Shown: in pieces, positions 4,728 to 22,598 of the stretch | Numbering within the stretch: position 1 is the first letter of the stretch | Layout of the letters: each line of letters opens with the position of its first letter | Assembly (NCBI GenBank): GCA_017482945.1 | Contig: JAFUMF010000010.1 | Coordinates: 1 to 32,693 of the forward strand | DNA: 32,693 bases | Source: Lachnospiraceae bacterium | GTDB taxonomy: Bacteria > Bacillota > Clostridia > Lachnospirales > Lachnospiraceae | Direction of reading: 5' to 3' | Notes under the pieces: model-generated | The model's input: only the letters and a program-made list of their open reading frames with translations | What the model was told of the DNA's origin: nothing | Database searches by the model: none | Translations under genes and position numbers: made by a program

Positions 4728-7700
4728 TTACGATTTTCTAAAATCCTCCTCAATCACTTCCCACGCAGCATCCACGCTGAAGTAATCGCGAATAAACTTC
4801 TGTGTCTCCAGGCACATTGCTTTGCATTCGGCCGGATCATTGTAAAGCTCCACAACCTTCGCTGCAAAGTCCGCCGGCTCATCGGCGATCTTCATGACTC
4901 TCTCGGCCTGGGTAATGCCCTCGGCACCGATGGATGTGGTCACAATTGCAGAACCGTTGTAGATGGCTTCGACCACTTTGCCTTTCACACCTGCGCCGTA
5001 GCGGAGCGGAACGATGACAATGCGGCTTGTGGCATAAAGTTCAGCCAGTTCTTCCTCAGAAACAAAGCCTTTTACGATGATTCCATTGCCCGGCTCTTCC
5101 AGCGCTTTGATTTCCTCTGTCACCTTGGAGCCAACGATATAGAACGGAACCTCTATCTTCTCACGGATCAGCGGGAAGATTTCCTTTGCAAACCATAACA
5201 CCGCGTCAGCATTCGGCGGATGGGCAAAGCCACCGACGAATAACAGGCCTTCTCTCTTCGAAAAGTCCATGTCGATGTTCTCCAAGAATTTCTCGTAAAC
5301 ATACGCTGTAATCGCTTTCACATTGATTTCCGGTTTGATTGCATGGATAGCCTCTTCCTCCACGTAAGACGGATAGTATGCCACTTCCGCTTTTTCCATG
5401 AGGGTGAACTCGATGGACTTCCAGTAATCAGAATCTCTCTTCTTCTGGATGTCGCCGGTCAGCTCATATTCGCGATACTCTCTTAAGAAATGCAGGTCAT
5501 GGCCGTAGTAAATGATCTTGATGTCCGTGTTTTTCTTAATAAAGTCAATGTACTTGGTCGCTATATGCGGACGGTTCAAGTACACGAAATCGATCTCGTC
5601 CTTATTCTTCATGATCCAGTCCCAGATACCTGCCTGATATTCCGGACCATAAAGGATCTCCACGCCCATCTGCTGGAGCGTTGTGGAGTACGGTTCTTCA
5701 TGAAGGAAGTTGTCACCTAAAAACTTCACAACATAGCCCTTCTGGATGAACATCTTCAGATATTGGTATGTGGTCTTGGAACCGGCATCTTTATCGAAGG
5801 TCGGTACATAATGATCGACAACTAAAATTACCGGTTTTCTCTGGCTGCGCTCGCGGGCGCGGAACGGGTTCGGATTGCCGGTATTGACAGACTGTTTCTT
5901 GAACTCCTCCGCCCATTTTTCTTTTAACTTCTTGCTGTTTTCCACCTGATATCGCTTCAGGCCGGTACCATTGACATCGGTACCATTGGAAACACCTTCG
6001 AAGTGAATGACTTTTGATAATGGCTGATAGACCACGCGGTATCCTGCAGCGCGCACCTGGAATGCCAGGTCAGAGTCTTCGCAATATGCAGGTGCAAAAT
6101 GATCATCAAAACCGCCAAGCTGCTTCCATAAATCCGTGGACAGCAAAATCGCCGCACCGGAAATGTAGTCAACGTCTTTCACATAGTTGTATTCCGCCTT
6201 GTCCGGATCGTCCAGGCGGCCATAGTTCCAACCAGAACCGTCGCTCCAGATAATTCCGCCTGCCTCCTGCAGTCTTCCGTCCGGGTAAACCAGCTTGGAT
6301 CCCACCATACCGATGGTCGGGTCGGACTCGATCAGGTTCACGAGTGAAGAAAGCCAGCCCGGTGTCACCTGAGTGTCATTGTTTAAGAACATGACATATT
6401 TTCCACGGGCAGATTTCGCTGCGTTGTTGCAGTTTCTGAGGAATCCCTGGTTTGTCTGGTTGCGGCAGATCACAAGATTCTCGGCGTAAAGATTCAGCTC
6501 TTTGGTCGCATCGGAGGAAACATCGTCTGCGATAATCACTTCGTAAGTCACATCCTGTGTGTGCTGCAAAATCGATACCAGACACGCATAGGTGTAGTGG
6601 ATCTGGTTGTACACCGGAATCACGATGGAAACAGTCGGATTCTCATAATGCGGGAATTTCAGTTTTCCATGCTCCATGTAACCTTCGCCGATTTTGAAAT
6701 CACCACGGATCAAATTGCGTCCCTCGGCTGTGAAATACAGTTTTCCGTATTTCGCCGGACGAAGGATCGTATTTTTCACATATGTGAGCACTTTTCTCTT
6801 TCTTGTGCCCTTTGGCAGGATCTTGTTGACTACCTTATGGCACTTTCTCAGCACTTTCCAAATGATGGACTCGTGCTTTGCAAGATACTGCAGAGTCTTT
6901 GCGATCTCCGCATTCTCGCGGCGCAGGTCAGCAATAATCACATCCAGGTTTGCCACATGGTTGTTGGTCAGACGCTGGACTTCCTGCTGCTTTACAATGG
7001 TCACGTCTTTTTCGGCAATCTCTGCTTTCAGATTCTCGCACCATTCTTTTACGATCTTCAGCTCGTTTTCACGGTCTAACAGGAATTCGATGGTTTTCGC
7101 TTCCTGCTCGTACTGTTTCATGTACTGGAAATTTCCTTCTCCATGGACATAGGCCTGGAATGCCTCTTCCATGGTCATAAAGATTTCCTGTTTCTCTTTA
7201 TCGATTTCGAAATATTCGAAAATCGCCTCCTGGCCACAGTCTAAGATGTTTTCGTATCTGCGGTAAAAATAGAGGAGGTTTCTAAAGTGTAAGAACTTCG
7301 CCGGGATCGGGAAGTTAAACACCCACTCATAATCGATTCCGTAAATGGTTCCATCGGACACCATCAGGTTTTCAAACAGGCCGTCCACGTTGGATACCGG
7401 GACAATGCGGTCTTCCATCTCCGGCACCTCGCCGAATACCGCCTTGAACTCATCGCACGGGACAAAGGTTTCTAATGATTTGGCTGGATTTACAAAATCC
7501 TCCGGGAATACCACTGCCATGCATTCACAGAGCGCCTCATACGGCACTTCGCCCATCTGGATCTGCTCGCCCAGCACATCGCCGATGGTCTTTCCCGTCA
7601 GGTATTCAAATCTCACGGTCTTTCCGGCATGCAAAAACTCCGGTTTCAGGAATTTGATCGCCGGGTTTAAGTCCTTAATCTTGTTATATTTTTCTTCAAA

Positions 7701-7841
7701 AGAACGGATGTGATCTTTTCCGGCTTCGCTCAGAGCCGTTTTTTCCACAGCGAGTACACCGTTCTCTCGAACGATGACCGTCTTAAGCTGGAACTGTTCC
7801 GCTCTTGTTCGGTTGTATTTTACATACTCAATCTGTCTCAT
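4728..7841 (-). CDS. Kinase-like / coiled-coil / GT2 / GT4 multidomain glycosyltransferase
   Basis: This 1037-residue cytoplasmic protein has four regions. Residues 1-240 look like a kinase fold: a VEK lysine K34, hinge-like EYLTGKT at 79-85, catalytic-loop-like NVDGLFEN with D153 and N158, and a DFG-like D170 in GIDYEW. Residues 245-325 are charged and helical, a probable coiled coil. Residues 400-650 are a GT2 domain (VSIVIPVYN, D439-D440, NND at 487-489, CEDSDLAF at 587-594). Residues 668-1037 are a GT4-like GT-B domain ending in GFVSEEELAELY and KVVEAIYNGSAIVTT. ATG 7841 overlaps the methyltransferase stop (ATGA) and has AAAGGG upstream. It should extend or cap the polysaccharide. Acceptor and sugars cannot be read from sequence. 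Confidence 0.85.
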   Translation of the reverse strand: MRQIEYVKYNRTRAEQFQLKTVIVRENGVLAVEKTALSEAGKDHIRSFEEKYNKIKDLNPAIKFLKPEFLHAGKTVRFEYLTGKTIGDVLGEQIQMGEVPYEALCECMAVVFPEDFVNPAKSLETFVPCDEFKAVFGEVPEMEDRIVPVSNVDGLFENLMVSDGTIYGIDYEWVFNFPIPAKFLHFRNLLYFYRRYENILDCGQEAIFEYFEIDKEKQEIFMTMEEAFQAYVHGEGNFQYMKQYEQEAKTIEFLLDRENELKIVKEWCENLKAEIAEKDVTIVKQQEVQRLTNNHVANLDVIIADLRRENAEIAKTLQYLAKHESIIWKVLRKCHKVVNKILPKGTRKRKVLTYVKNTILRPAKYGKLYFTAEGRNLIRGDFKIGEGYMEHGKLKFPHYENPTVSIVIPVYNQIHYTYACLVSILQHTQDVTYEVIIADDVSSDATKELNLYAENLVICRNQTNQGFLRNCNNAAKSARGKYVMFLNNDTQVTPGWLSSLVNLIESDPTIGMVGSKLVYPDGRLQEAGGIIWSDGSGWNYGRLDDPDKAEYNYVKDVDYISGAAILLSTDLWKQLGGFDDHFAPAYCEDSDLAFQVRAAGYRVVYQPLSKVIHFEGVSNGTDVNGTGLKRYQVENSKKLKEKWAEEFKKQSVNTGNPNPFRARERSQRKPVILVVDHYVPTFDKDAGSKTTYQYLKMFIQKGYVVKFLGDNFLHEEPYSTTLQQMGVEILYGPEYQAGIWDWIMKNKDEIDFVYLNRPHIATKYIDFIKKNTDIKIIYYGHDLHFLREYREYELTGDIQKKRDSDYWKSIEFTLMEKAEVAYYPSYVEEEAIHAIKPEINVKAITAYVYEKFLENIDMDFSKREGLLFVGGFAHPPNADAVLWFAKEIFPLIREKIEVPFYIVGSKVTEEIKALEEPGNGIIVKGFVSEEELAELYATSRIVIVPLRYGAGVKGKVVEAIYNGSAIVTTSIGAEGITQAERVMKIADEPADFAAKVVELYNDPAECKAMCLETQKFIRDYFSVDAAWEVIEEDFRKS

Positions 7842-8794
7842 TCGTTCCCTTTCTCCCATACTCCAAGGAAGGAGTTGTTAAACTTCGTAAATTCGCCGTT
7901 CTGGCACGCCTTCGCCATGGCCTCTTCCTCGCTGCCGAACCAGAAGCCCGGCCCATCCAGACGTGCAGAGATGTTGGTCACATCACCGGTCTGCGGAAGG
8001 TAATGGTCGGAGTACACAGCCACCGGATAACGGTAGTCCGGCACCGGGTAGTACATGGTGAATTGGCCGCCGAGGGATCTCTTCAAATCCTCAAATAAGC
8101 CCCTAAATTCCACCTCAAGGAATGCAGTCTCAAACTTCTCCGCCCCCATCCAATAGCGAACGCCAGTCTCATTCTCCACTGCCGCAAGCATGGTTCCGCC
8201 CGGTTTCAGGAAATTGGCTGCCGCCCGTAAAATTTCGGTTGCATCTTCTTTCTTGCACTGGCTTAAATGGCCGCCTAAAACCACATAATCAAACGGCTGG
8301 AACATAATTTCCTTCATTGATTTCGCTGCCTTTTCTGTGCCTGAACCGCCATTTCCTACCTTCGGCTTATATTCTTTATAATTTTCTTCATTTCTTACGA
8401 TCGCTGAAACTGCGCCGGCGTTCGGATTCTCCGCCTTCATTTTTTCTACCAGCGCCTTCGCCTCGCGGACATCTGCCAGAATGTCACCTCTCACGAACCG
8501 CACATTGCCGCGTTCTCCATGGCGGATCCGGTTGACCTCTAAATTCTCATCTCTCGGATCCAGGACCACGACCTCGCCGGCCTGTTCTGCAATTATTCCG
8601 GTGAAAGAGCCATAATCAGAACCGATCTGAAGTACTCTTGCATCCGGCTCGAATTCCACCCACTCGAAGAGATTTTCTCTTAACGGTGAAAACGCATAAA
8701 GGCACTGCGGGCTATTTTCGCCCGCAAGTGCCGCATTTATATCATTATTATACTTTTTCAGTAAATCCAGAATATCGTAACTAAAATCGTTCAT
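7838..8794 (-). CDS. Class I SAM-dependent methyltransferase
   Basis: The 318-residue protein has a Rossmann SAM-binding core: motif I VLQIGSDYGSFTG at 54-66, an acidic ribose-binding D79 in VVLDP, then FDYVVLGG and NFLKPGGTMLAAVENETG downstream. A poorly conserved insert rich in K, E and G (about 112-165) separates the halves. No membrane segment is seen. It lies between the Wzt-type ATPase and the kinase-like glycosyltransferase, overlapping the latter by four bases, so the two are probably translationally coupled. Context suggests methylation of a sugar or phosphate on the growing polysaccharide, possibly a chain-end cap. GGGAG lies about seven bases upstream of ATG 8794. Confidence 0.82.
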   Translation of the reverse strand: MNDFSYDILDLLKKYNNDINAALAGENSPQCLYAFSPLRENLFEWVEFEPDARVLQIGSDYGSFTGIIAEQAGEVVVLDPRDENLEVNRIRHGERGNVRFVRGDILADVREAKALVEKMKAENPNAGAVSAIVRNEENYKEYKPKVGNGGSGTEKAAKSMKEIMFQPFDYVVLGGHLSQCKKEDATEILRAAANFLKPGGTMLAAVENETGVRYWMGAEKFETAFLEVEFRGLFEDLKRSLGGQFTMYYPVPDYRYPVAVYSDHYLPQTGDVTNISARLDGPGFWFGSEEEAMAKACQNGEFTKFNNSFLGVWEKGNE

Positions 8795-8883
8795 CTATTT
8801 TCTCCCGAACTTTTCTTCGCCATTCTTACCAAACCAGTCTGAGCAAGCCACTCTTACGGCTCGGCGACTGTGGCGGTACACGT

Positions 8884-10212
8884 TTACGCCTTCGTCAGAG
8901 CCGTCTCGACTTCCGACTCCATGTCATAAACGCCAACGGTATTTTTATTGGAAATCACTGTAATATTCGCCACATTATACAGTCTATGATAAACCACATG
9001 CTCCTCACCCTCAAAGCCGGTGCAGCTCATGGACAAGAGGTACTCGCCACCCTGCAGTGTCATCTTCTGGGTAAAGGAAACATCGTACACATCGCCCGGT
9101 CCCACCGGTTTGACATCCGCACCTTCGTACATCGTGTTGGTACCGGAAAGATCCATTCCTTTCTTATCTCTGATCGTGTACGTAAAGATCGGATTCTGGA
9201 GCGGCGCGTTGAAACGAATGCGCTCCTTGATCGTGAACATCTCACCTTTGATCAGGAGATTGGTCAGATTTCCGCGGGCATCAAAGAGACCCAGATCAAA
9301 AATTTCCGCTCTTCCGTCGCCATATTCCGTACGGTCCGTGTTGATGGTGATCTTCTCTTTCATCAGACCGGTATGGGACATGGCCGCTTCCTTGCTGGAC
9401 ATGGCCTTCTTTTCTGCACCATCAATCTCCATGCCGCCGGAAAAATCATTCTCCAGCTCCTCACGGAGAGAGTCCATCTGGTTAGCGAGAATCTTCTTAT
9501 ATAAATCCACCATGCGGCCCGGCTCACCCTCGGCGATGAACTCGCCCTTATTGAGGAGCACGACCTTGTCACAGTATTTGATAATACTTCCCATATCGTG
9601 GGTAACCATCAGAATCGTCGTGCCGTTCTGGCGGATCTCCTCCATACGGCGGTAACACTTCGCCTGAAAGAACACGTCTCCGACAGAAAGGGCCTCATCA
9701 ACGATCAAAATCTCCGGCTCTACGTTGATCGCCAGCGCAAACGCCAGACGCACGAACATACCACTGGAGTATGTCTTCACCGGCTGATGCACGAAATCAC
9801 CGATGTCCGCGAAATCCAGGATGTCCTGAAGCTTCTCGTCCATCTCCTTCTTCGTAAAGCCCATCATGGTACCGTTCATGTAAATATTTTCAATTCCGGT
9901 GTAGTCCATGTTGAAGCCGGCACCAAGCTCTAACAGCGCGGAAATCTTTCCGTCCACAGTCACTTCGCCGGTGGTCGGTGTCAGAACACCGGTAATGATT
10001 TTAAGGATCGTAGATTTACCGGAGCCGTTGGTTCCGATGATTCCCACAGTCTGTCCCTTTTCCACCTGAAAAGACAGGCCGTTGAGAGCGTAGAAATCCT
10101 TGTGGTAACTCTTATGCTTCGGATTCAGAGACTCCTTCAACCGGTCGATCGGCTTATCATACAATCTATATACTTTTGTTACGTCTTTTACTTCAATCGC
10201 ATTAACGGACAT
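8884..10212 (-). CDS. wzt: Polysaccharide ABC exporter ATPase with Wzt C-terminal domain
   Basis: This is the ATP-binding subunit of a Wzm/Wzt (TagGH-like) exporter. Residues 1-245 hold the ATPase: Walker A GTNGSGKST 60-68, signature YSSGM 148-152, Walker B ILIVDEAL 168-174 and switch H205. Residues about 290-435 match the Wzt C-terminal beta-sandwich type (GDGRAEIFDLGLFD through GGEYLLSMSCTGF), which in O8/O9a systems recognises the modified end of the glycan. At 442 residues it has the long form. AGGAGG precedes ATG 10212. It pairs with the permease upstream and is followed by the methyltransferase. The symbol is by family. Confidence 0.92.
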   Translation of the reverse strand: MSVNAIEVKDVTKVYRLYDKPIDRLKESLNPKHKSYHKDFYALNGLSFQVEKGQTVGIIGTNGSGKSTILKIITGVLTPTTGEVTVDGKISALLELGAGFNMDYTGIENIYMNGTMMGFTKKEMDEKLQDILDFADIGDFVHQPVKTYSSGMFVRLAFALAINVEPEILIVDEALSVGDVFFQAKCYRRMEEIRQNGTTILMVTHDMGSIIKYCDKVVLLNKGEFIAEGEPGRMVDLYKKILANQMDSLREELENDFSGGMEIDGAEKKAMSSKEAAMSHTGLMKEKITINTDRTEYGDGRAEIFDLGLFDARGNLTNLLIKGEMFTIKERIRFNAPLQNPIFTYTIRDKKGMDLSGTNTMYEGADVKPVGPGDVYDVSFTQKMTLQGGEYLLSMSCTGFEGEEHVVYHRLYNVANITVISNKNTVGVYDMESEVETALTKA

Positions 10213-10258
10213 TAGTCCCTCCTACAAATTGTCATCTGCCAAGACAGAAGACTCGTTC

Positions 10259-10278
10259 CCCGGACTTCCCCATCCGGG
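10259..10278 (-). other. Intergenic hairpin between permease and ATPase genes
   Basis: CCCGGA (10259-10264) and TCCGGG (10273-10278) can pair around an 8-base loop in the 83-base gap between the exporter genes. No T run follows, so it is not a terminator; it may stabilise or process the mRNA. Confidence 0.4.
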
Positions 10279-10295
10279 CCGCCGGCCGATGCCGA

Positions 10296-11114
10296 CTATA
10301 ATACATCAGAAAAATGCGGGCGCAGGCGTTTGAATACTTTCAGTCCCACCAGCATTATCACAATGGTCACGCCCCAGAAATAAACAGTCAAAGTCGGGCG
10401 CATCCAGAACCAGTCACCAGTTAACATGCTGTCACGATAACCGGCCGCAATATAATAAAACGGATTCAGCTTCAAAATAAACGGAGCCATGGTCAGTCCA
10501 CGGTCCACGAACAGGTTCTCACTGTACATGATCGGAGTCAGCCACATGCCAAACTGCAGACAGATGCTTACGATCTGCGCCATGTCCTTAAAGAACACCT
10601 GAATCGCACTGGTCAAATACGAAATTGCCAGAGCGAGCATGGACGCCGCAAACGCATAGTAAATAATCTGCAGCCAGGAAACCTGCGGCATCTCACCGCT
10701 GATCAGAAACACGACAAACATAATTACCACAAAGAACGCATGCACAAACAGGCAGGAGATCAGCTTGATAATCGGCAGCATTTCTACCTTGAACACGACC
10801 TTCTTCACCAGATAATTATACTCCTGCAGACACCCCGTGCCACAGTTTAACGCCTCTGAAAAGAAAAACCATGGTGCAATTCCAGGCACCAGCCACTGCA
10901 CATAAGAAGCATTCGGCACCGGCGGCGCACTCTTAAATCCATATGGACCAAAAATGATCCAGTAAATCAAAACGGTAACGATCGGCTGGACAAACATCCA
11001 GACAATACCGAAATAAGAGCCCACGAACCGCTTCCTGAAATCAGCCTTCGCCAGATCCCAGACAAGCCGCCGCTTTGCAAACAGCTCTTTTATAAGAGAA
11101 ATCACATAATTCAC
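10296..11114 (-). CDS. wzm: Polysaccharide ABC exporter permease (Wzm/TagG type)
   Basis: This 272-residue integral membrane protein has about six hydrophobic spans and the ABC-2 permease features of polysaccharide exporters, including the N-terminal DLAKADFRKRFVGSYFG segment before the first span. With the adjacent Wzt-type ATPase it should move lipid-linked polysaccharide across the membrane. Translation begins at GTG 11112-11114, with GAGGG about nine bases upstream; no better ATG is available. It starts 15 bases after rmlC, so the two are co-transcribed. Confidence 0.9.
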   Translation of the reverse strand: MNYVISLIKELFAKRRLVWDLAKADFRKRFVGSYFGIVWMFVQPIVTVLIYWIIFGPYGFKSAPPVPNASYVQWLVPGIAPWFFFSEALNCGTGCLQEYNYLVKKVVFKVEMLPIIKLISCLFVHAFFVVIMFVVFLISGEMPQVSWLQIIYYAFAASMLALAISYLTSAIQVFFKDMAQIVSICLQFGMWLTPIMYSENLFVDRGLTMAPFILKLNPFYYIAAGYRDSMLTGDWFWMRPTLTVYFWGVTIVIMLVGLKVFKRLRPHFSDVL

Positions 11115-11129
11115 GCGATAAAACCCTCA

Positions 11130-11705
11130 CTATTTCTCGAATTTAAAAATCTCGTCAAACTTGCCCCACTTGGTATCCTTCTCAGAAAGCAGAACTTCCA
11201 TATCCTCAGTAATCGGCCATTTCACGCCAATGGTCTCATCATTCCAAAGCAGACCACCCTCATCACCCGGATGATAGAAGTCCGTACACTTATAAGCAAA
11301 CTCCGCCTCGTCAGAAAGCACTAAAAATCCATGGGCAAATCCCTCCGGAATATAAAACTGCTTCTTATTCTCCGCAGTCAGCTCCACACCATACCACTTA
11401 CCATAAGTCTCAGAATTTGTTCTAAGATCCACAGCCACATCAAACACTGCACCACGGATCGCACGAACTAACTTACCCTGCGGAAACTGCTTCTGAAAAT
11501 GCAGACCACGAAGCACGCCCTTCACAGACATAGACTGATTATCCTGCACAAACACCATATCCAGTCCGGCTTCCTTAAAATCATTCTGATTATAAGTCTC
11601 CACAAAATAACCACGCGCATCCTTAAACACAGTCGGCTCAATCACAAAAAGACCTTCAATAACTTTTCCATCCACCTCACACGGTGTAACCGTAATCTTA
11701 CCCAT
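11130..11705 (-). CDS. rmlC: dTDP-4-dehydrorhamnose 3,5-epimerase
   Basis: RmlC epimerises C3 and C5 of dTDP-4-keto-6-deoxyglucose, the third step to dTDP-L-rhamnose. The 191-residue length is standard. Family marks are RGYFVETYN at 31-39, GLHFQ with the catalytic base H69, K79, VAVDLR at 91-95, and FAHGFLVL at 123-130 followed by Y138 and the DFYHPGDEGG segment. GAGGT lies seven bases upstream of ATG 11705. It is first behind the promoter at 11805-11833. rmlA, rmlB and rmlD are absent here and must lie elsewhere if the pathway is complete. Confidence 0.96.
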   Translation of the reverse strand: MGKITVTPCEVDGKVIEGLFVIEPTVFKDARGYFVETYNQNDFKEAGLDMVFVQDNQSMSVKGVLRGLHFQKQFPQGKLVRAIRGAVFDVAVDLRTNSETYGKWYGVELTAENKKQFYIPEGFAHGFLVLSDEAEFAYKCTDFYHPGDEGGLLWNDETIGVKWPITEDMEVLLSEKDTKWGKFDEIFKFEK

Positions 11706-11804: not shown

Positions 11805-11833
11805 ATCATACCATCATAATCTCAAACTGACAA
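11805..11833 (-). promoter_or_regulatory. Sigma-A-type promoter for the rmlC-exporter operon
   Basis: On the minus strand TTGTCA (11828-11833) and TATGAT (11805-11810) are separated by exactly 17 bases. The -35 lies inside the last codons of the DUF2142 gene. Transcription would start near 11798, leaving an untranslated leader of about 90 bases before rmlC. Confidence 0.7.
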
Positions 11834-13448
11834 TACTAAACACCCGCAAAAGCACATAACAGTTGAGCGCACACATATAAAATACTAACGTTTCATCACT
11901 GCCACCCGTGCGCACGACCCTGTCGCTCTTCAAACACATAAACACAAACGGAATCACCGGAAGCAGGTATCTTCCCTGCACCCCTTCAACCACCTGTGAA
12001 CTCAAAGGCGTCCAGGCGATCAACATCGCCGTCATCAATCCAAGAAGACATCCAACTGCCAGAAAGCAAACCCAGGCCTTCTGCCAGCCCTTCATATAAA
12101 GTGGCTCCCCTGCATTCCGAAGACTCAGCAGCACTAAGCAGACCGCCATAGCCCCCACAACCCAAAACGGCACCGAAAGAACCGGATCCAAGTTTCCAAG
12201 CATACTGCCAAACAACTGCAGCGTCCATTCATCCCCCAAATGCACCAGTGAATCATACATCACCCGCGCAAAATTCAAAGGATTATGCAAAATCCAGGAA
12301 AAGCTATACGCCGGCTCCGCCGCCCACTCCACATAGGTATCCGTAGAAACCGCATAATTCGTAATCGTCGCCCGATTCACCAGAATCATCGCAGCCCCAA
12401 ACGCCACCAGCACAGCCGCAGCCGAAACCGTCCACTTCTTCCAATCCCCAAACTTCTTCACCGGAATCAAAAGTGCAAATCCCATCATCACCGCATAGAC
12501 CATCTTACACGGTCCAAACGCCGCCGCGAGCACCGCAAGCAGCACGATATCTTTTATCTCCACCATCGGCTTCGCATACGCCAGATGCAGACAATAGCTT
12601 CCAAAAAAGAAACAGGTCGCCATCAAAAATGCGTCATAGGAATAAGATGCCGCCAGATGAAGCGCCATCGGAAGCACCGACACCCCAAAGAGCACCATCT
12701 TCCCAAACGGCAGCACCTTCACTGCCCCATACACCATTCCGGCATAAAACAGCAGATTAAAGAATCGTCCCAAGAACGCCAGCACAATACAGTTTACACC
12801 AAGCAACCTGCCAAGAGTGATTCCAATGGCCGGTGCCAGATAAGAAACCGGAGTCGTATGATTCTGTCCATTGACCGAGGAGACCATGACCTTCTGCTCA
12901 TCCTCGACGAAAATCGGAAACGCCCGGTCATAAATCTTCTGCCAGGTATCCTCTGTAAGCGTCCGGCCAAGGGATGTTCTCACCTCGTCCCCGCTCACTT
13001 GTTCCACATTCTGTAAGAACTCGTCCTCTTTTCTCATAAGAACGAACCCATACTCATCCGTCCGCTCCATCCCCATCATCTGGTTGGAGATCGCGTAGGC
13101 ACTTGCAAAATGTGCGATCTCATCCGGAGCCGAAAGCGGCGGCAGCACGACCATGTACATTCCGCCCAGCACCAGAACAGCCAAAAAAGCACAAACCTCT
13201 ACCCGCACCCGCTTCCACCAGGAACTGTTCCATCGAACCTTTCCCTCGCTGCACGGCCACAAAAACAACGCGCCGAACACCGCCAGGAAAGCAGCCGCGG
13301 CCACCAAAAGCCCTATATACAGATCACAAAGCCAGAAATCCCCGGACGCCGCTACGCCTCTTCGGGTTTCCAGAAAATGCCATCCACCAAGGACAGCCAC
13401 CAACAGGACCATAATCCACGGCCCTGAAATCTTTAATTTCTGTTTCAT
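11814..13448 (-). CDS. DUF2142 polytopic membrane protein (putative GT-C glycosyltransferase)
   Basis: This 544-residue protein has about a dozen hydrophobic spans. After the second span a conserved loop reads PPLSAPDEIAHFASAYAIS (about 106-124), the hallmark of DUF2142 proteins. These are distantly GT-C-like, with an acidic loop motif suited to using polyprenyl-phosphate sugars outside the membrane. It overlaps the DUF2304 gene by four bases, and a DPM1-like transferase precedes that. The grouping suggests external side-chain glycosylation. A polysaccharide polymerase role is possible. The family is confident, the function inferred. Confidence 0.82.
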   Translation of the reverse strand: MKQKLKISGPWIMVLLVAVLGGWHFLETRRGVAASGDFWLCDLYIGLLVAAAAFLAVFGALFLWPCSEGKVRWNSSWWKRVRVEVCAFLAVLVLGGMYMVVLPPLSAPDEIAHFASAYAISNQMMGMERTDEYGFVLMRKEDEFLQNVEQVSGDEVRTSLGRTLTEDTWQKIYDRAFPIFVEDEQKVMVSSVNGQNHTTPVSYLAPAIGITLGRLLGVNCIVLAFLGRFFNLLFYAGMVYGAVKVLPFGKMVLFGVSVLPMALHLAASYSYDAFLMATCFFFGSYCLHLAYAKPMVEIKDIVLLAVLAAAFGPCKMVYAVMMGFALLIPVKKFGDWKKWTVSAAAVLVAFGAAMILVNRATITNYAVSTDTYVEWAAEPAYSFSWILHNPLNFARVMYDSLVHLGDEWTLQLFGSMLGNLDPVLSVPFWVVGAMAVCLVLLSLRNAGEPLYMKGWQKAWVCFLAVGCLLGLMTAMLIAWTPLSSQVVEGVQGRYLLPVIPFVFMCLKSDRVVRTGGSDETLVFYMCALNCYVLLRVFSIVSLRL

Positions 13449-13825
13449 GAATTGGTTTCTTCCTTCATTTCTTCTACCGGATCATTTTTTTCATTCCGGA
13501 TATTTTCGTCAATGGCAATCCGCGCCACCAAATCCTTCATCTTCGCTTCCAGCTGGGAAATCTTCGTGGACATCTGGAACATCCGCACAATCAGAACGAA
13601 AATAATAAACAGGAAAATAAAATTCGCCGGAGCCTGGGTTCCAACCAGCTCTGACATCTTAAACACGATCTGCGGAAAGACACTAAAAAGAATCAGCATG
13701 AACGAAAATCCGATCCAGAACAGAGAATCCTCGATCATCATTTTCTCTTTCCGGATTTTTCGCATGATCAAAAGTGTTGTACCCACTGAAGCAAGAATCA
13801 ACACACTTCGAAGTAACAATGACAT
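13445..13825 (-). CDS. DUF2304 small membrane protein
   Basis: The 126-residue protein has three hydrophobic spans (about 4-20, 33-52 and 66-83), then a charged, probably coiled-coil tail from about 88 (STKISQLEAKMKDL). This is the layout of DUF2304 proteins that accompany DPM1-like transferases in polysaccharide loci. It sits between such a transferase (10-base gap) and DUF2142 (4-base overlap). It may anchor the transferase or help flip the lipid-linked sugar, by analogy with GtrA. AGGAGG stands seven bases before ATG 13825. Confidence 0.8.
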   Translation of the reverse strand: MSLLLRSVLILASVGTTLLIMRKIRKEKMMIEDSLFWIGFSFMLILFSVFPQIVFKMSELVGTQAPANFIFLFIIFVLIVRMFQMSTKISQLEAKMKDLVARIAIDENIRNEKNDPVEEMKEETNS

Positions 13826-13835
13826 AATCTTCCTC

Positions 13836-14531
13836 CTAAGAACGGTCCCGTTTTCGGAAATTCTGGATCAGCAAAATCGATACCAGCATCTGGGTCATGT
13901 ATTTTGCCGCACGAACCGGGGTCAGATAACTGGTTCCACTGATTCGCTCGTCCATGATGACCGGGACCTCGGCCACCTTTGCCCCCTGCTTCACCAGGTA
14001 GGACACCGTGTCCGGCTCCGGACCGTAGTTCAGTCCCTGGGCAAATTCGCGGATCATCTTGCGGCTGAACATTCTCATGCCGGACGTCGGGTCTTTTATG
14101 TCCGCCCCTGTCGTGATCCGGATCGCGAACTGGAGAAGGTTACTTCCGAGCATTCTCATGGTCATCGGCTTCTTCTCGTTGATGAATCGGGAGCCGATCA
14201 CAATATCGTAGCCCTCGTCCATTTTCTTTTTCATGTCACCGACAAAGTCCGGTCTGTGCTGGCCATCGCCGTCCAGCTGGATCGCACACTCGTATCCTTT
14301 CGCATAAGCATAGCGGATTCCCGCCTGGAATGCGCCCGCCAGGCCCAGATTCACCGGCAGATCCAGGAAATTATACCCGCGTCTTCTGCAGATCTCGCCG
14401 GTCTTGTCCTTAGATCCGTCGTTGATCACCACATAATCATACTGCGGAAAGTTCTGAATCAGATGGTCCACGACTCTCTCAATATTCTCTTCTTCATTAT
14501 ACGCAGGGATCATAATCAAAACATTCGACAT
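13836..14531 (-). CDS. DPM1/GtrB-like family 2 glycosyltransferase
   Basis: The 231-residue GT-A enzyme has IPAYNEEENI at 8-17, NDGSKDKT at 37-44, and the DxD-bearing DGDGQH at 87-92, followed by GSRF at 113-116. These are typical of transferases that load a sugar onto polyprenyl phosphate. It lacks the C-terminal membrane spans of GtrB; the neighbouring DUF2304 protein may supply the anchor. AAGGAT lies about nine bases before ATG 14531. The sugar it uses is unknown. Confidence 0.88.
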   Translation of the reverse strand: MSNVLIMIPAYNEEENIERVVDHLIQNFPQYDYVVINDGSKDKTGEICRRRGYNFLDLPVNLGLAGAFQAGIRYAYAKGYECAIQLDGDGQHRPDFVGDMKKKMDEGYDIVIGSRFINEKKPMTMRMLGSNLLQFAIRITTGADIKDPTSGMRMFSRKMIREFAQGLNYGPEPDTVSYLVKQGAKVAEVPVIMDERISGTSYLTPVRAAKYMTQMLVSILLIQNFRKRDRS

Positions 14532-15559: not shown

Positions 15560-16396
15560 CTATGACTCATAATTCTCGTATGCCTTCTTATAATAACGCA
15601 TCAGGATCTTTACCATCCACTCCGGCCACATTTTCTGGAACATGGCGATTTCATCCTGACTTCGTCTATTGTCTTCGATGCACTGTTTCGTAGTGGCACC
15701 GTCGTGGACTCTGTATGCAATAAGCGGTGTCTCGGCGCAGATAAAGCGGCCCGGCTTCATCGCCAGCTCATACAGATTCTCCCAGTCCAACGCAAATTCC
15801 ATATCCGATGCGAACATGTCATCGCCGATAAAATCATGGTTGTAAGTACAGCTTGGACAGCAGATGGAGTTTCCAAACATCAGCACACTCTTTTTCACCC
15901 AGGTCTGATCCGCTATTTTGCGAAGTCGGAGCGGAAGACGAAGAATTTTCTTCACGAACCGTACCAAATCCCCTGTGACCATTTTCGTTCCGCCCGGATA
16001 CACAGTTCCGTCCGAAAGAATTCCTTCCTCTGTCCGAAGCACCACATAATCCGAACAAAAAACAGTCATGTCCGGGTAAGTTTCGTAGGCTTTTAACAGT
16101 TCTTCTGTATAGTTGGGATGGTATTTATCGTCCTGATGGGCGATGGTCACGAGGCTGTGGTCCTTTCCGGCCAGTCTCCAGCCAAAGAGCCAGTCTTCTT
16201 TCAGGCTGCTCTCGCCATCGCGGACGAACACCGGGATTCTGTACTTTTCCGCAAGCTTATCAATGTACTCCGAAGGTGTGGATGTGACCAGATAAATGTC
16301 AGATTTCACCTTCTGTCTCCTGAGCGACCGGATGCAAAACTCCAGATATGGACTTTTCTTATATGCACAGATCACAAACGCATGGGTCCTGCTCAA
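15560..16396 (-). CDS. Family 2-like glycosyltransferase with TTG start
   Basis: This 278-residue GT-A-like protein begins HAFVICAYKKSPYLEFCIRS, has the metal-site AHQDDKYHPNY at 86-96, and a late SDMEFALDWENLYEL region. The start is TTG 16396, overlapping the previous stop as TTGA, with GAGGG about seven bases upstream. Translational coupling to the flippase-like gene is therefore likely and expression may be low. The 91-base gap downstream holds nothing recognisable. Donor and acceptor are unknown. Confidence 0.78.
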   Translation of the reverse strand: MSRTHAFVICAYKKSPYLEFCIRSLRRQKVKSDIYLVTSTPSEYIDKLAEKYRIPVFVRDGESSLKEDWLFGWRLAGKDHSLVTIAHQDDKYHPNYTEELLKAYETYPDMTVFCSDYVVLRTEEGILSDGTVYPGGTKMVTGDLVRFVKKILRLPLRLRKIADQTWVKKSVLMFGNSICCPSCTYNHDFIGDDMFASDMEFALDWENLYELAMKPGRFICAETPLIAYRVHDGATTKQCIEDNRRSQDEIAMFQKMWPEWMVKILMRYYKKAYENYES

Positions 16397-17673
16397 TGGT
16401 TGTCCCTCACTTTCCTAACAACTCCAACAAACACAAACATTCCAAACAGCACCATCAGGGCTGCCATCAAAATCACATACGCCAGCGCACCGCCGAAAAT
16501 TCCGCCAGAGCGGACAAGCGGAGTGGACAGAAGCACCGCCATGATGCCTACGATCCCGTAAACTCCGAAGATATATTTCTGCATCTTCATGATCACCAAC
16601 GCATAGTAGAACAGGCTCATGAACGCATTGAGCGCTCCGCCCAGAATAATCAGCACGAATGCCGGGCGACACTCCGCCAGTGCGTAGCTGATATTGGAAT
16701 AAAGAAGACTTAAGACCGGAATGCCAAGGAACCATGCACATCCCAGGGCCAAAACTGTCAGTGCTGCGATCACACCCGCCAGTTTTCCGATGGTCTTCAT
16801 AAATCGTTTCGTATCTCCCATCTCCCAGACAAGAGACATCTTTGTAAGATACGGGCGGATGACAAATCCCGCCACCAGGTTGATCACACTGGTCGGCATG
16901 AAAATTGCTCCATAGACCGCCATATCTTTGTCCGCCATACACGCCTCAATGGCATATTTCGATGCGGAGAAAATATAGAAATCAAGCACCACTGAGAAAA
17001 ACAGCAGTGTGTTGTCTTTGAAAAGCTTGAATTTCCGGCCCGGTTTCGATTTCCAGTCGATGTTCGGAAGTTCCCGGATCACCAGCACATCGAAGACCAA
17101 AAAGCCTACGATCTGCGCCGCTACCGCAAGACCACTGGCTACTACCAGCATCTTTGTCGCTGCAAGTACACTCAGGAACACACCAACCGAAAGAATGGTA
17201 CGGAACGCATTGGATTTTCCCGTCAGATACAATCTTCCGCTTCGCTGGAACTCCGCCTCGTACGTATCCGCAAGCGCATCAATGACCTTATACGCCACCA
17301 TCAAAACGACAGTTGCCGCCTTGTCAAAGGAATAATCATTGACCGCCACAAATCCCAGACCCACAAGAAGCGCTGCCCCACAGGTGAACAGTCTGAGCCC
17401 CAGATATTCTCCGAAGGAATACTGGTTTCCTGTGTCCGTGATCTGGAATGGACGGATTCCAAAGTATGCCATCGTGAACATGTGCTGGCCGAGGGTCGTG
17501 AATGCGAAGGTAAAAATACCGCCCGCGTCCTCACCTGCGATCTGCACCACAGCGATGGTCAGGATCATGGACGCGAAGGCATATAGGAAACTTCCCACCA
17601 TGTTCCAGACAATATTCCGTTTTTCCAGATTTTGATCATCCCTCCCGATGATCAGGCTCGCTACTTGATTCAT
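16393..17673 (-). CDS. Flippase-like polysaccharide membrane protein
   Basis: The 426-residue protein has about twelve hydrophobic spans in the pattern of Wzx/PST exporters of the MOP superfamily. A cytoplasmic start LEKRNIVWNMVGSFLYA is followed by paired helices to the C-terminus. It is divergent and lacks a diagnostic short motif. It should move lipid-linked oligosaccharides or a lipid-linked sugar across the membrane. It is the second flippase-type protein of the locus. GGAAG lies six bases before ATG 17673. The following glycosyltransferase overlaps its stop. Confidence 0.78.
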   Translation of the reverse strand: MNQVASLIIGRDDQNLEKRNIVWNMVGSFLYAFASMILTIAVVQIAGEDAGGIFTFAFTTLGQHMFTMAYFGIRPFQITDTGNQYSFGEYLGLRLFTCGAALLVGLGFVAVNDYSFDKAATVVLMVAYKVIDALADTYEAEFQRSGRLYLTGKSNAFRTILSVGVFLSVLAATKMLVVASGLAVAAQIVGFLVFDVLVIRELPNIDWKSKPGRKFKLFKDNTLLFFSVVLDFYIFSASKYAIEACMADKDMAVYGAIFMPTSVINLVAGFVIRPYLTKMSLVWEMGDTKRFMKTIGKLAGVIAALTVLALGCAWFLGIPVLSLLYSNISYALAECRPAFVLIILGGALNAFMSLFYYALVIMKMQKYIFGVYGIVGIMAVLLSTPLVRSGGIFGGALAYVILMAALMVLFGMFVFVGVVRKVRDNH

Positions 17674-17762: not shown

Positions 17763-18869
17763 TTACAGGTGACCGAATTCCTTCTTCACACACTGGAATG
17801 CAGACTCGATTACCTTATCCATGTCATAATATTTGTACTCAGCCAGACGGCCGCCGAAGATCACGTTCTCCTCGCCTGCTGCCAGCTCGGCATATTTCTT
17901 ATATAATTCCTGGTTTCTCTCATCGTTCACCGGATAGTACGGCTCCATGCCCTCTGTCCACTCCGCCGGATACTCCTTAGAAATGACAGTCTTCGGCTGT
18001 GTACCGAACTCAAAATGCTTGTGCTCGATGATACGTGTGTACGGAGTCTCGCGGTCTGTATAGTTGATCACCGCATTTCCCTGGAAGTTATCGGTATCGA
18101 GAACTTCATTCTCAAAACGCACGGTACGATACTGGAGCTTTCCGAACTGATAATCAAAATAGCTGTCGATGGTTCCTGTATAAACCACCTTCTCAGCCAA
18201 TGCGTCATATTCTTCCTTATTCTCAAGATAGTCCGTATTTAAGCGCACTTCACAGCCCTCAAACAACTTATCCACGATCTTATTATAACCACCGATCGGA
18301 ATACCCTGATAAAGATCATTGAAATAGTTGTTATCATAAGTATAACGAACCGGCAGACGCTTAATAATAAATGCCGGAAGTTCCTTACAATCTCTTCCCC
18401 ACTGTTTCTCCGTATAGCCTTTCACCAGCTTCTGATAAATATGAGTACCTACAAGGCTGATCGCCTGCTCCTCCAGGTTCTTTGGCTCACCCTTAATGAT
18501 CTTTCTCTGCTCATTAATAATCGCCTTTGCCTCATCCGGAGTAGAAATCTTCCACATCTTACTGAAGGTATTCATATTAAACGGCATGTTATACATCTCA
18601 CCCTTATAATTGGCCACCGGACTATTTGTATAACGGTTAAACTCCACCAGATCATTTACAAAATTCCAGACTTCCTTATTGCTGGTATGGAAAATATGCG
18701 CACCATACTTATGCACATGAATTCCCTCAACCTCTTCACAGGCAATATTACCGCCAAGATGATCCCTTTTCTCCAGAACCAGGCACTTTTTGCCCTCTTT
18801 CTTCGCAAAAAAAGCAAACACACCAGCAAACAAACCGCTTCCCACAAGCAGATAATCGTACTGTTTCAT
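17763..18869 (-). CDS. glf: UDP-galactopyranose mutase
   Basis: Glf interconverts UDP-galactopyranose and UDP-galactofuranose using reduced FAD. The 368-residue length is standard. The FAD-binding start is YLLVGSGLFAG (GSGLFAG 10-16), followed by LEKRDHLGGN at 32-41 and the substrate-side HKYGAHIFHTS at 53-63. The active-site segment GYTEKQWGRDCKELP comes later. It implies galactofuranose in the polymer. AGGAGG precedes ATG 18869 at normal spacing. It follows the DegT gene closely. Confidence 0.96.
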   Translation of the reverse strand: MKQYDYLLVGSGLFAGVFAFFAKKEGKKCLVLEKRDHLGGNIACEEVEGIHVHKYGAHIFHTSNKEVWNFVNDLVEFNRYTNSPVANYKGEMYNMPFNMNTFSKMWKISTPDEAKAIINEQRKIIKGEPKNLEEQAISLVGTHIYQKLVKGYTEKQWGRDCKELPAFIIKRLPVRYTYDNNYFNDLYQGIPIGGYNKIVDKLFEGCEVRLNTDYLENKEEYDALAEKVVYTGTIDSYFDYQFGKLQYRTVRFENEVLDTDNFQGNAVINYTDRETPYTRIIEHKHFEFGTQPKTVISKEYPAEWTEGMEPYYPVNDERNQELYKKYAELAAGEENVIFGGRLAEYKYYDMDKVIESAFQCVKKEFGHL

Positions 18870-21134: not shown

Positions 21135-22598
21135 CTATCTCGCCTCCTTACGTGGCATACGGCTCATCACCATATCCCAAAAATAACGAAAACTCTCTAA
21201 TTTAAACATTCCAGCCAGCGCCACATAAACGCAAACGCCGATGAAAATCTGCACCACCAACCGTACAAGCAACGGCAAAAATACCAGCCACTTTCCGGCC
21301 GCCATAACGGCCATGCACATCACAGCAGATAAAAGTGCCGGCGGCATGACATCCCGCCACTGGTCCAGAATGCTATATCCAAGCAGTTTCTTGTTCGGTG
21401 CCGCATTGACGAAGGTGCACAGGAAATCCTGGAACGCCTTGATGGACACCATAATATAGACATTGAACTGCATTCCAATGAGCAGTGCGATCACACTAAG
21501 TCCTTTTTTCACCACTTCCAGCTTCAGGAAAATATCGCTGCGTCCCACCGCATTGATAGCCTGAAGGTTCGTGATGTGGATCGGCCAGAAGCAGTATGTG
21601 ATGCATGTGATCCGAAGGAACGGCACGCACACCAGCCACTGCTCCCCAAGGAGCACCAGAACCAGCGTATCTGCCACCGCAAATAACCCCAAAAGCATCG
21701 GGAGCACCACAAAAGAGCTCATCTGGATCGCCCGGCGGACCATCTCGCGCACTTCCTTCATATTGTCCTGCTTCGCGGAAAACGCCGGAAGCAGCACTGC
21801 CTGGATCGCCGCGCCAAGGTTTGTGGCGATCAGCTTCGGGAACTGCTCTCCGCGGTTATAGCTTCCAAGCAGTTCTTCATTATAAATCTTTCCTATTAAT
21901 AAACCATAGAGGTTATTAAACACCGTATCAAGCAGGGACGCGCACAAAAGCTTCCAGCCAAAGGCGAACAATGTTTTCAGCTTTTCCAGACTGAACAGCT
22001 TTGCCGGTTTCCATGAAACGGTAAAGAACAGCACAGTCATCAGCGCAAAATAGTAAATGATCTGCTGGCCTACCATGGCCCAAACGCCAAAGCCCGCCAT
22101 CGCCATTCCGATGCTGACCGCGCCGGATATCAGCGATGCCGCCAATGTGGAAAGGAACAGTCCCTTAAACTCCAGATTTCTGGATACATAAGCAGTCTGG
22201 ACCGAAATCACCGCGCCTGGAAACAGCACGATAGCCAGGACCCGCACAATTTCTTTTAATTCCGGTATTTCATAAAATGACGCAATATACGGAGCTGCCA
22301 GATAAAGGACCGCGTAGAGCACCACCGAAAGCGCCAGTTCAAAATAGCATACCGATGAAAAATCAGACGCGTCCGCATTCTTTTTCTGCACCAGCGCAGT
22401 GCTGAAACCACTCTGGACAAAGACGTTGGCGATCGTGATGAAGATCATGATGATTCCGACGACGCCGTACTCCGCAGGTGTCAGGAGTCTCGCAAGAAGG
22501 ATGGCAACGACAAACTGTACCGCCTGGGCACCGCCGTTCTCCAAAAGCTTCCAGAAGAGGCCCTTCACCACTTTATTTTTCATTTCTGTTTCTGTCAC
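21135..22598 (-). CDS. Wzx/WzxC-type oligosaccharide flippase
   Basis: The 487-residue membrane protein belongs to the MOP superfamily. The start VVKGLFWKLLENGGAQAVQF followed by LLARLLTPAEYGVVG is diagnostic for WzxC-like polysaccharide flippases, and about 14 hydrophobic spans follow. It should flip undecaprenyl-linked oligosaccharide. GTG 22598 is chosen because AGGAG lies six bases upstream; the ATG at 22583 has no site at proper spacing. It begins 13 bases after the first glycosyltransferase of the operon and its stop is 3 bases from the ATP-grasp start. Confidence 0.92.
   Translation of the reverse strand: MTETEMKNKVVKGLFWKLLENGGAQAVQFVVAILLARLLTPAEYGVVGIIMIFITIANVFVQSGFSTALVQKKNADASDFSSVCYFELALSVVLYAVLYLAAPYIASFYEIPELKEIVRVLAIVLFPGAVISVQTAYVSRNLEFKGLFLSTLAASLISGAVSIGMAMAGFGVWAMVGQQIIYYFALMTVLFFTVSWKPAKLFSLEKLKTLFAFGWKLLCASLLDTVFNNLYGLLIGKIYNEELLGSYNRGEQFPKLIATNLGAAIQAVLLPAFSAKQDNMKEVREMVRRAIQMSSFVVLPMLLGLFAVADTLVLVLLGEQWLVCVPFLRITCITYCFWPIHITNLQAINAVGRSDIFLKLEVVKKGLSVIALLIGMQFNVYIMVSIKAFQDFLCTFVNAAPNKKLLGYSILDQWRDVMPPALLSAVMCMAVMAAGKWLVFLPLLVRLVVQIFIGVCVYVALAGMFKLESFRYFWDMVMSRMPRKEAR

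What the first reader, a model, noticed from the sequence alone, without database searches (positions are those of the whole stretch)
4728..10212. Split WbdD-like capping and chain-length module next to a Wzt with C-terminal domain
Seen: minus-strand order is Wzt with a C-terminal domain, a SAM methyltransferase, then (4-base overlap) a protein whose first 240 residues carry kinase-like landmarks (K34, D153, N158, D170), followed by a probable coiled coil and GT2 and GT4 domains. Established: in E. coli O8/O9a, WbdD combines methyltransferase, kinase and coiled coil, caps the glycan end and sets its length, and the cap is read by the Wzt C-terminal domain. Inference: this Gram-positive locus has the same modules in the same order, split into two genes and fused to the polymerising transferases. 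I know of no description of this arrangement in Clostridia.
Basis: partly seen in the sequence, partly recalled or inferred. Interest (0 to 1): 0.78.

Follow-up and report, generated by a model that had tools for sequence, protein, structure and literature searches.

The report
Glycan-end capping enzyme pair in Lachnospiraceae
Two overlapping genes next to a sugar-chain exporter encode a methyltransferase-family protein and a large protein that joins a predicted kinase, a predicted coiled-coil ruler and two sugar-adding domains; together they likely stop a surface sugar chain at a set length by putting a (methyl)phosphate cap on its end, which the exporter would then recognise, and relatives of the kinase occur in about half of the genomes sampled from the same bacterial family.

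Summary
The window carries Wzm, Wzt with a C-terminal domain, a methyltransferase (MT) and, after a 4-base overlap, a 1037-residue protein: predicted APH-fold kinase, long helix, GT2, GT4. The K/D/N/D landmarks are invariant in 77 aligned sequences. The closest characterised relative is not WbdD but the Klebsiella O7 terminator ORF6 (2024), which fuses MT, kinase, coiled coil and two GTs and adds methylphosphate to the chain end; I link the two by sequence through Pseudomonas and Citrobacter proteins. The module is common: a strong kinase match is in 104 of 200 genomes of the window's family. In 80 close loci MT and kinase are one polypeptide in 45 and two genes in 34; long-form Wzt is in the locus in 78, directly upstream in 75. 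Three distant loci have a short Wzt instead. A Wzt C-terminal subfamily tracks the kinase (95 of 100 against 1 of 36; line drawn after seeing the scores). Cap chemistry is inferred, not shown; the SAM loop of this MT is altered. My searches of one open-access library showed no report of this terminator class in Gram-positives. New variant of a known kind.

The parts
4728..7841 (-). giant protein: kinase, coiled coil, GT2, GT4 (1037 aa from ATG 7841; 1043 aa from ATG 7859)
7122..7841 (-). predicted APH-fold kinase domain (K40, D159, N164, D176 in 7859 numbering)
6825..7091 (-). long helix, probable coiled-coil ruler (helix 257-339 seen in the modelled stretch 1-340; end at about 345 estimated)
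5994..6629 (-). GT2 glycosyltransferase domain
   Evidence: Pfam PF00535, PF13641
4815..5249 (-). GT4 glycosyltransferase domain
   Evidence: Pfam PF13692, PF00534
7838..8794 (-). class I methyltransferase, stand-alone partner of the kinase
8884..10212 (-). Wzt, ABC exporter ATPase with C-terminal carbohydrate-binding-type domain (Wzt_C at 8920-9333)
10296..11114 (-). Wzm, ABC exporter permease
   Evidence: PF01061 E 1.4e-9
11130..11705 (-). RmlC, dTDP-4-dehydrorhamnose 3,5-epimerase (rhamnose supply)
   Evidence: PF00908 E 6.7e-74

Best explanation
The methyltransferase at 7838-8794 and the kinase at the start of the giant protein likely form one chain-terminating enzyme that phosphorylates the non-reducing end of a lipid-linked glycan and would then methylate that phosphate. 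In the inferred cycle the GT2 and GT4 modules of the same polypeptide extend the chain at the membrane, the long helix holds the terminator at a distance from them and so sets the chain length, and the cap ends growth and is the ticket that the C-terminal domain of Wzt reads before Wzm/Wzt exports the chain. It works like WbdD but belongs with the O7 (ORF6) type of terminator, here cut into two genes and with a GT2-GT4 pair as polymerase. Shown: gene order, domains, conserved residues, predicted folds, homology, co-occurrence. Inferred: every enzymatic step, the cap's identity, the ruler function, cap reading by this Wzt, rhamnose in the glycan.
Against: No activity, cap or glycan structure was measured in any of these bacteria by anything seen here. 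The window's MT lacks the second Gly of the SAM loop (G93 is D60; D is the majority letter in its group) and two more of the six O7 SAM-site residues (Y28, Y158), so methylation is the weakest step. No conserved helix-C Glu was seen (E56 is E in 9 of 28). The Gram-negative kinases differ too: the Lys is H or R there, and the Citrobacter kinase region alone gave no row in the locus scan and only E 2.6e-4 in a two-sequence search. Foldseek TM-scores for the kinase are modest (0.40 / 0.49). Three distant loci have MT-kinase beside a short Wzt: L144 (its genome G076 had no Wzt_C row), L164, L167. Eleven of 107 kinase-bearing contigs in the 200-genome sample have no Wzt_C within 12 kb; five of these contigs are 3 to 16 kb long. 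Three of the 40 more distant loci fetched have no Wzt_C in the stretch (L111, L113, L124). The link to O7 ORF6 goes through a Pseudomonas protein, as the ORF6 sequence itself was not in reach. Co-inheritance of an operon would give the same co-occurrence without cap reading.
Confidence: 0.74

Rival explanations
1. The kinase phosphorylates the chain end but the final cap is not methylphosphate: the methyltransferase has another role (sugar O-methylation or making a cyclic phosphate), giving a cap such as the 2,3-cyclophospho-rhamnose of the C. difficile SLCT-11 S-layer glycan.
For: That glycan, in a clostridium and exported by an ABC transporter, ends in 2,3-cyclophosphoryl-rhamnose (PMC6254364, abstract and passages). 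The window MT departs from the O7 SAM-site residues.
Against: 79 of 80 close loci have the MT with the kinase, and the O7 pair, to which it is related, makes methylphosphate (PMC11231755). The C. difficile main text holds neither 'kinase' nor 'methyltransferase', and that locus was not compared here.
Confidence: 0.13
2. The kinase domain is a catalytically dead or regulatory scaffold, and termination is by simple O-methylation as in E. coli O8 WbdD or Geobacillus WsaE.
For: WsaE is a Gram-positive MT-GT-GT protein that makes a 2-O-methyl cap for a Wzm/Wzt system, with no kinase mentioned in the passages seen (PMC2943079).
Against: K40, D159, N164 and D176 are invariant in 77 sequences and nearly so in 54 diverse ones, which a dead domain would not be expected to keep.
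Confidence: 0.06
3. The pair decorates an internal or initiating sugar or a small metabolite of the glycan pathway and does not end the chain; Wzt co-occurrence is operon inheritance only.
For: Small-molecule kinases (APH, LicA, macrolide kinases) are the nearest folds. Three loci have exporters without the C-terminal domain.
Against: A Wzt_C subfamily tracks the kinase: 95 of 100 strong Wzt_C genes have it within 12 kb, 1 of 36 weaker ones does, and the related O7 protein is a proven terminator.
Confidence: 0.07

Closest known systems
K. pneumoniae O7 ORF6 (methyltransferase-kinase terminator fused to two rhamnosyltransferases; PMC11231755)
   Same: Order MT, AmiN-like kinase, coiled coil, two GT modules; next to wzm/wzt and dTDP-rhamnose genes; AmiN and CgnL among the fold matches; aligned D-N-D of the kinase through a Pseudomonas relative.
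   Different: Here MT is a separate gene; GT2 plus GT4 instead of two GT2; no room for an Ig-like CBM between kinase and helix in the model; Gram-positive host; three of six SAM-site residues differ and E112 is the similar D.
E. coli O9a WbdD (PMC3482155)
   Same: MT, kinase, coiled coil in this order; partner of a Wzt with C-terminal domain.
   Different: WbdD's kinase is described as resembling eukaryotic protein kinases (Src, ROCK); no sequence or fold row naming WbdD in the listed rows; its polymerase is a separate protein (WbdA).
Geobacillus stearothermophilus WsaE (PMC2943079)
   Same: Gram-positive, Wzm/Wzt exporter, N-terminal MT fused to two rhamnosyltransferases, cap at the non-reducing end.
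   Different: No kinase mentioned in the passages seen; cap is 2-O-methyl; [quoted passage not shown]
C. difficile SLCT-11 S-layer glycan (PMC6254364)
   Different: Cyclic phosphate; no capping enzyme is named in the passages read; S-layer protein as acceptor.
Aquifex aeolicus Wzm/Wzt (PMC9445017)
   Same: Wzt C-terminal domain related in sequence to the window's (6o14, which the paper names as its apo domain, E 4e-4); binds the capped end.
   Different: Cap is 3-O-methyl mannose or rhamnose.

Membership tests
O7 (ORF6) type methyltransferase-kinase terminator | N-terminal class I MT homologous to the ORF6 MT | tested here: met
   Pseudomonas/Citrobacter relatives against 15 fused MTs of the window's family: prob 100, E 6e-59; a profile from the window's group (A2) finds the MTs of L092-L131. 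ORF6 sequence itself not available, so the Pseudomonas protein stands in for it.
O7 (ORF6) type methyltransferase-kinase terminator | APH/AmiN-like kinase with catalytic Asp (D441) | tested here: met
O7 (ORF6) type methyltransferase-kinase terminator | Six SAM-site residues Y28, Y66, G91, G93, E112, Y158 | tested here: inconclusive
   Window keeps Y66 and G91, has D for E112 and for G93, lacks Y28 and Y158.
O7 (ORF6) type methyltransferase-kinase terminator | Coiled coil after the kinase | tested here: met
   One helix over 257-339 in the model with a heptad pattern; oligomeric state not modelled.
O7 (ORF6) type methyltransferase-kinase terminator | MT and kinase in one polypeptide | tested here: not met
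   Two genes in the window; one polypeptide in 45 of 80 close loci. The claim made here is kinship and likeness of working, not identity of gene layout.
O7 (ORF6) type methyltransferase-kinase terminator | ATP- and SAM-dependent methylphosphate on the chain end | not testable with these tools
   Needs enzyme assay and NMR.
WbdD (O9a type) | Kinase domain related to WbdD's | tested here: inconclusive
   WbdD is in none of the listed rows (several lists are capped); no direct comparison with a WbdD sequence was made.
WbdD (O9a type) | MT, kinase and coiled coil in one polypeptide | tested here: not met
   Split in the window.
Wzt with C-terminal domain (PF14524) | ABC ATPase followed by Wzt_C | tested here: met
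   E 4.8e-40, 137.3 bits against cut-off 30.4.
APH-like kinase fold | APH-type fold with Lys, Asp-x4-Asn, Asp motif | tested here: met
WsaE (2-O-methyl cap) type | MT fused to two GTs without a kinase | tested here: not met
   A predicted kinase domain is present and the MT is a separate gene.

The most novel reading that the evidence does not exclude
Probability: 0.5. Interest if true: 0.75.

Novelty: new variant of a known kind. Interest (0 to 1): 0.63.

Why it matters
If true, capped, length-controlled, ABC-exported glycans are a standard surface feature of a dominant gut family, in bacteria that have no LPS, to which the paradigm was tied. The relatives that carry a name in the listings are called 'class I SAM-dependent methyltransferase', 'glycosyltransferase' or hypothetical, so the kinase is invisible in annotation. 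It gives a specific, testable end-group for glycans that immune cells and phages meet, and a possible way to read cap type from the Wzt domain.

Tried and rejected
Membership in WbdD was sought by sequence and profile searches of the PDB and by fold; WbdD appeared in no listed row, which does not exclude a distant relation (searches list 60 of 193 and of 116; the fold lists show 50). JAK1 rows at E 0.014-0.016 for the kinase profile match the N-lobe only and were not taken as kinship.

The kinase gene as a local oddity was rejected. Outside the family it is rare: 7 matching genomes outside the family in a class sample of 291 and 3 in a phylum sample of 299 that overlaps it, at E <= 1e-8.

The 130-bit line between strong and weak Wzt_C was drawn after seeing the list (gap between 133.2 and 121 bits). 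Of the 5 strong ones without a kinase within 12 kb, 2 lie at contig ends and 3 have a kinase on another contig of the same genome. The Fisher p value of 2e-30 ignores kinship. Kinase counts use E <= 4e-15 (104 genomes); nine further genomes with weaker rows only (9e-6 to 1e-3) were left out as probably other kinases.

Genes beside or near weak Wzt_C (12 loci fetched; 10 proteins from 8 of them tested): an MT in L132, L137 (FkbM type), L142 and L143; no MT in the proteins tested from L133, L134, L138, L140 (not every neighbour was tested; L134 has a weak MT row). None of the 12 had a kinase row.

Rfam: no match in the window. Papers: nine searches, judged by their listings and by the passages read, showed no methyltransferase-kinase terminator in Gram-positives; the library is open-access only and supplements were not seen. 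Recalled only, from no call: a rhamnose-mannose polysaccharide of Enterocloster bolteae (not used), and that 2r5o is the O9a Wzt domain.

Limits of samples: one search found 94 relatives and kept the best 80, with two peptide patterns that favour close kin; one search listed 120 of 357 and 120 of 5403 matches. Rows dropped: L021, L024, L026, L034 from A2/A3 (contig ends or probable frameshifts; L021 and L034 are counted as fused); L040 from A2 (no MT on the contig); A4 used 12 of the 80 close loci plus 41 domains from L092-L131; the Gram-negative set used 20 of 120 listed records plus two; the tree used 86 rows.
Full report
The observation. On the minus strand the window has Wzm (10296-11114), Wzt (8884-10212) with a Pfam Wzt_C domain (E 4.8e-40), a class I methyltransferase (7838-8794), and a giant protein whose ATG overlaps the MT stop by four bases (ATGA, 7841-7838). 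RmlC lies upstream of Wzm (11130-11705). The giant has GT2 and GT4 domains; its first 400 residues match no family model above cut-off.

What it belongs to. Kelly et al. 2024 (PMC11231755; sections 8 and 10 whole, 11 and 13 first part) showed that K. pneumoniae O7 ORF6 has an N-terminal MT, an unannotated kinase domain closest to AmiN, a coiled coil and two rhamnosyltransferase modules, and that it adds methylphosphate to position 3 of the terminal rhamnose; D441A stopped the kinase. They list orthologs in alpha- and gammaproteobacteria and cyanobacteria, and homologs in a Methanoculleus cluster; Gram-positive, Firmicutes and Clostridi do not occur in the main text. A tblastn search of plasmids with a fused MT-kinase from the window's family (L092) gave two hits, both Gram-negative and both behind an ABC permease and ATPase. 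The Pseudomonas asturiensis one (1457 aa) has all six published SAM-site residues of ORF6 at the same numbers, a catalytic Asp at 443, and DHDD and NND motifs in two GT2 modules: I take it as an ORF6 relative (inference). Profile comparison of its family (22 sequences; 20 and 17 after filtering) with the profiles from the window's family gave prob 98.3, E 2.2e-14 for the kinase and prob 100, E 6e-59 for the MT. In 28 sequences compared, the kinase D, N, D, E and R are shared by 27 or 28, but the Lys is H or R in the two Gram-negative ones, and the Citrobacter kinase region is only weakly recognised.

How common. A scan of named genomes for the kinase found 94 relatives, of which the best 80 were kept, most of them named Lachnospiraceae, Clostridium or related genera, a few only 'bacterium'. 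Of 80, 79 have the MT, 78 a Wzt with C-terminal domain, 75 with that Wzt within 300 bases upstream of the MT; L015 and L040, without Wzt, begin at contig ends. MT and kinase are fused in 45 and split in 34. On a tree of 86 kinases (quick method, many forks weak) the split/fused state changes 15 times, at least 4 forced by well supported branches. In 200 genomes of the window's family (199 genera, own genome included; unnamed, taken as Lachnospiraceae from the named nearest relatives) a single-sequence search found the kinase in 98 and the profile in 113 at E <= 1e-3, of which 104 are strong. Of 40 of these loci fetched, 37 have Wzt_C in the stretch, 30 within 300 bases of the MT. Other architectures occur: MT-kinase without GTs (L092), kinase with a short tail and no GT row (L097, L098), and all-in-one proteins such as L102 (MT, kinase, GT2 and two GT4-type domains, 1890 aa).

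Coupling to Wzt. Wzt_C is over the cut-off in 118 of the same 200 genomes. Both are present in 99, kinase only in 5, Wzt_C only in 19, neither in 77. Wzt_C genes fall in two groups by score, divided after inspection at 130 bits: of 100 above, 95 have the kinase within 12 kb; of 36 between 30.4 and 130 bits, 1 has. Of 12 loci of the second group fetched, none has a kinase row, and 4 of 8 tested have an MT beside or near Wzt (L132, L137, L142, L143). This is what a cap-reading domain matched to cap chemistry predicts, but also what operon inheritance predicts. Against: L144 (genome without a Wzt_C row), L164 and L167 carry MT-kinase beside a short Wzt.

Mechanism. I infer: GT2 and GT4 polymerise a (probably rhamnose-containing) chain on a lipid carrier; the helix keeps the terminator away until the chain is long enough; kinase then MT cap the end; the Wzt domain, related to the cap-binding A. 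aeolicus domain (6o14, E 4e-4) and to 2r5o (recalled as the O9a domain, E 0.0046), admits the capped chain. The genome has an initiating phosphoglycosyltransferase and an LCP-type ligase about 0.5 kb apart on another contig and a strong RmlD match, fitting a wall-linked rhamnose polymer. The weak point is the MT: its SAM loop reads G-S-D-Y-G instead of G-A-G-C-G, so the cap may be phosphate alone or another derivative.

Known background in Gram-positives. Geobacillus WsaE joins an MT to two rhamnosyltransferases and makes a 2-O-methyl cap for a Wzm/Wzt system (PMC2943079, passages). The C. difficile SLCT-11 S-layer glycan ends in 2,3-cyclophospho-rhamnose and its authors compared this with O9a (PMC6254364, abstract and passages). 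Phosphate-capped, ABC-exported glycans in clostridia therefore have chemical precedent; the passages read name no capping enzyme.

Verdict. Real, related to a proven terminator, widespread in one family and, as far as my searches of an open-access library show, undescribed there; not a new kind of system.

Noticed in passing
window 11814-14531: DUF2142 membrane protein, DUF2304 protein and a GT2 in a row, perhaps a module that adds side-chain sugars outside the membrane; DUF2142 rows recur in about a third of the 80 relatives.
   Followed up: partly
window 21135-22598: A Polysacc_synt_3 (Wzx-type flippase) gene in the same cluster as the Wzm/Wzt exporter, so two export routes may coexist or serve side chains.
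   Followed up: no
window 17763-18869: UDP-galactopyranose mutase, so galactofuranose may be part of the glycan.
   Followed up: no
window 16393-17673: 426-residue ORF in the cluster without any Pfam match at E <= 0.01.
   Followed up: no
L104:4905-11075: Two tandem MT-kinase genes of very different sequence in one locus; in the copy at 9207-11075 the catalytic Asp position appears to be Q.
   Followed up: partly
L152:1228-14859: Conjugative Citrobacter braakii plasmid with rml genes, ABC exporter with Wzt_C, MT-kinase-like gene and GTs in a row; its kinase has E where others have the metal-binding D.
   Followed up: partly
L092:7137-9239 (residues about 560-690): A further conserved stretch with a GxGFxEE and RIDP pattern follows the kinase in the 700-residue MT-kinase proteins, and a similar stretch is in the Pseudomonas protein; possibly the Ig-like CBM reported for O7 ORF6.
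   Followed up: no
L144, L164, L167: MT-kinase genes beside a short Wzt without C-terminal domain.
   Followed up: partly
window 6825-7091: In the predicted coiled coil E293, R296, L297, N300, H301, N304 and L305 are at 90% or more in 77 sequences, unusual for a mere spacer.
   Followed up: partly
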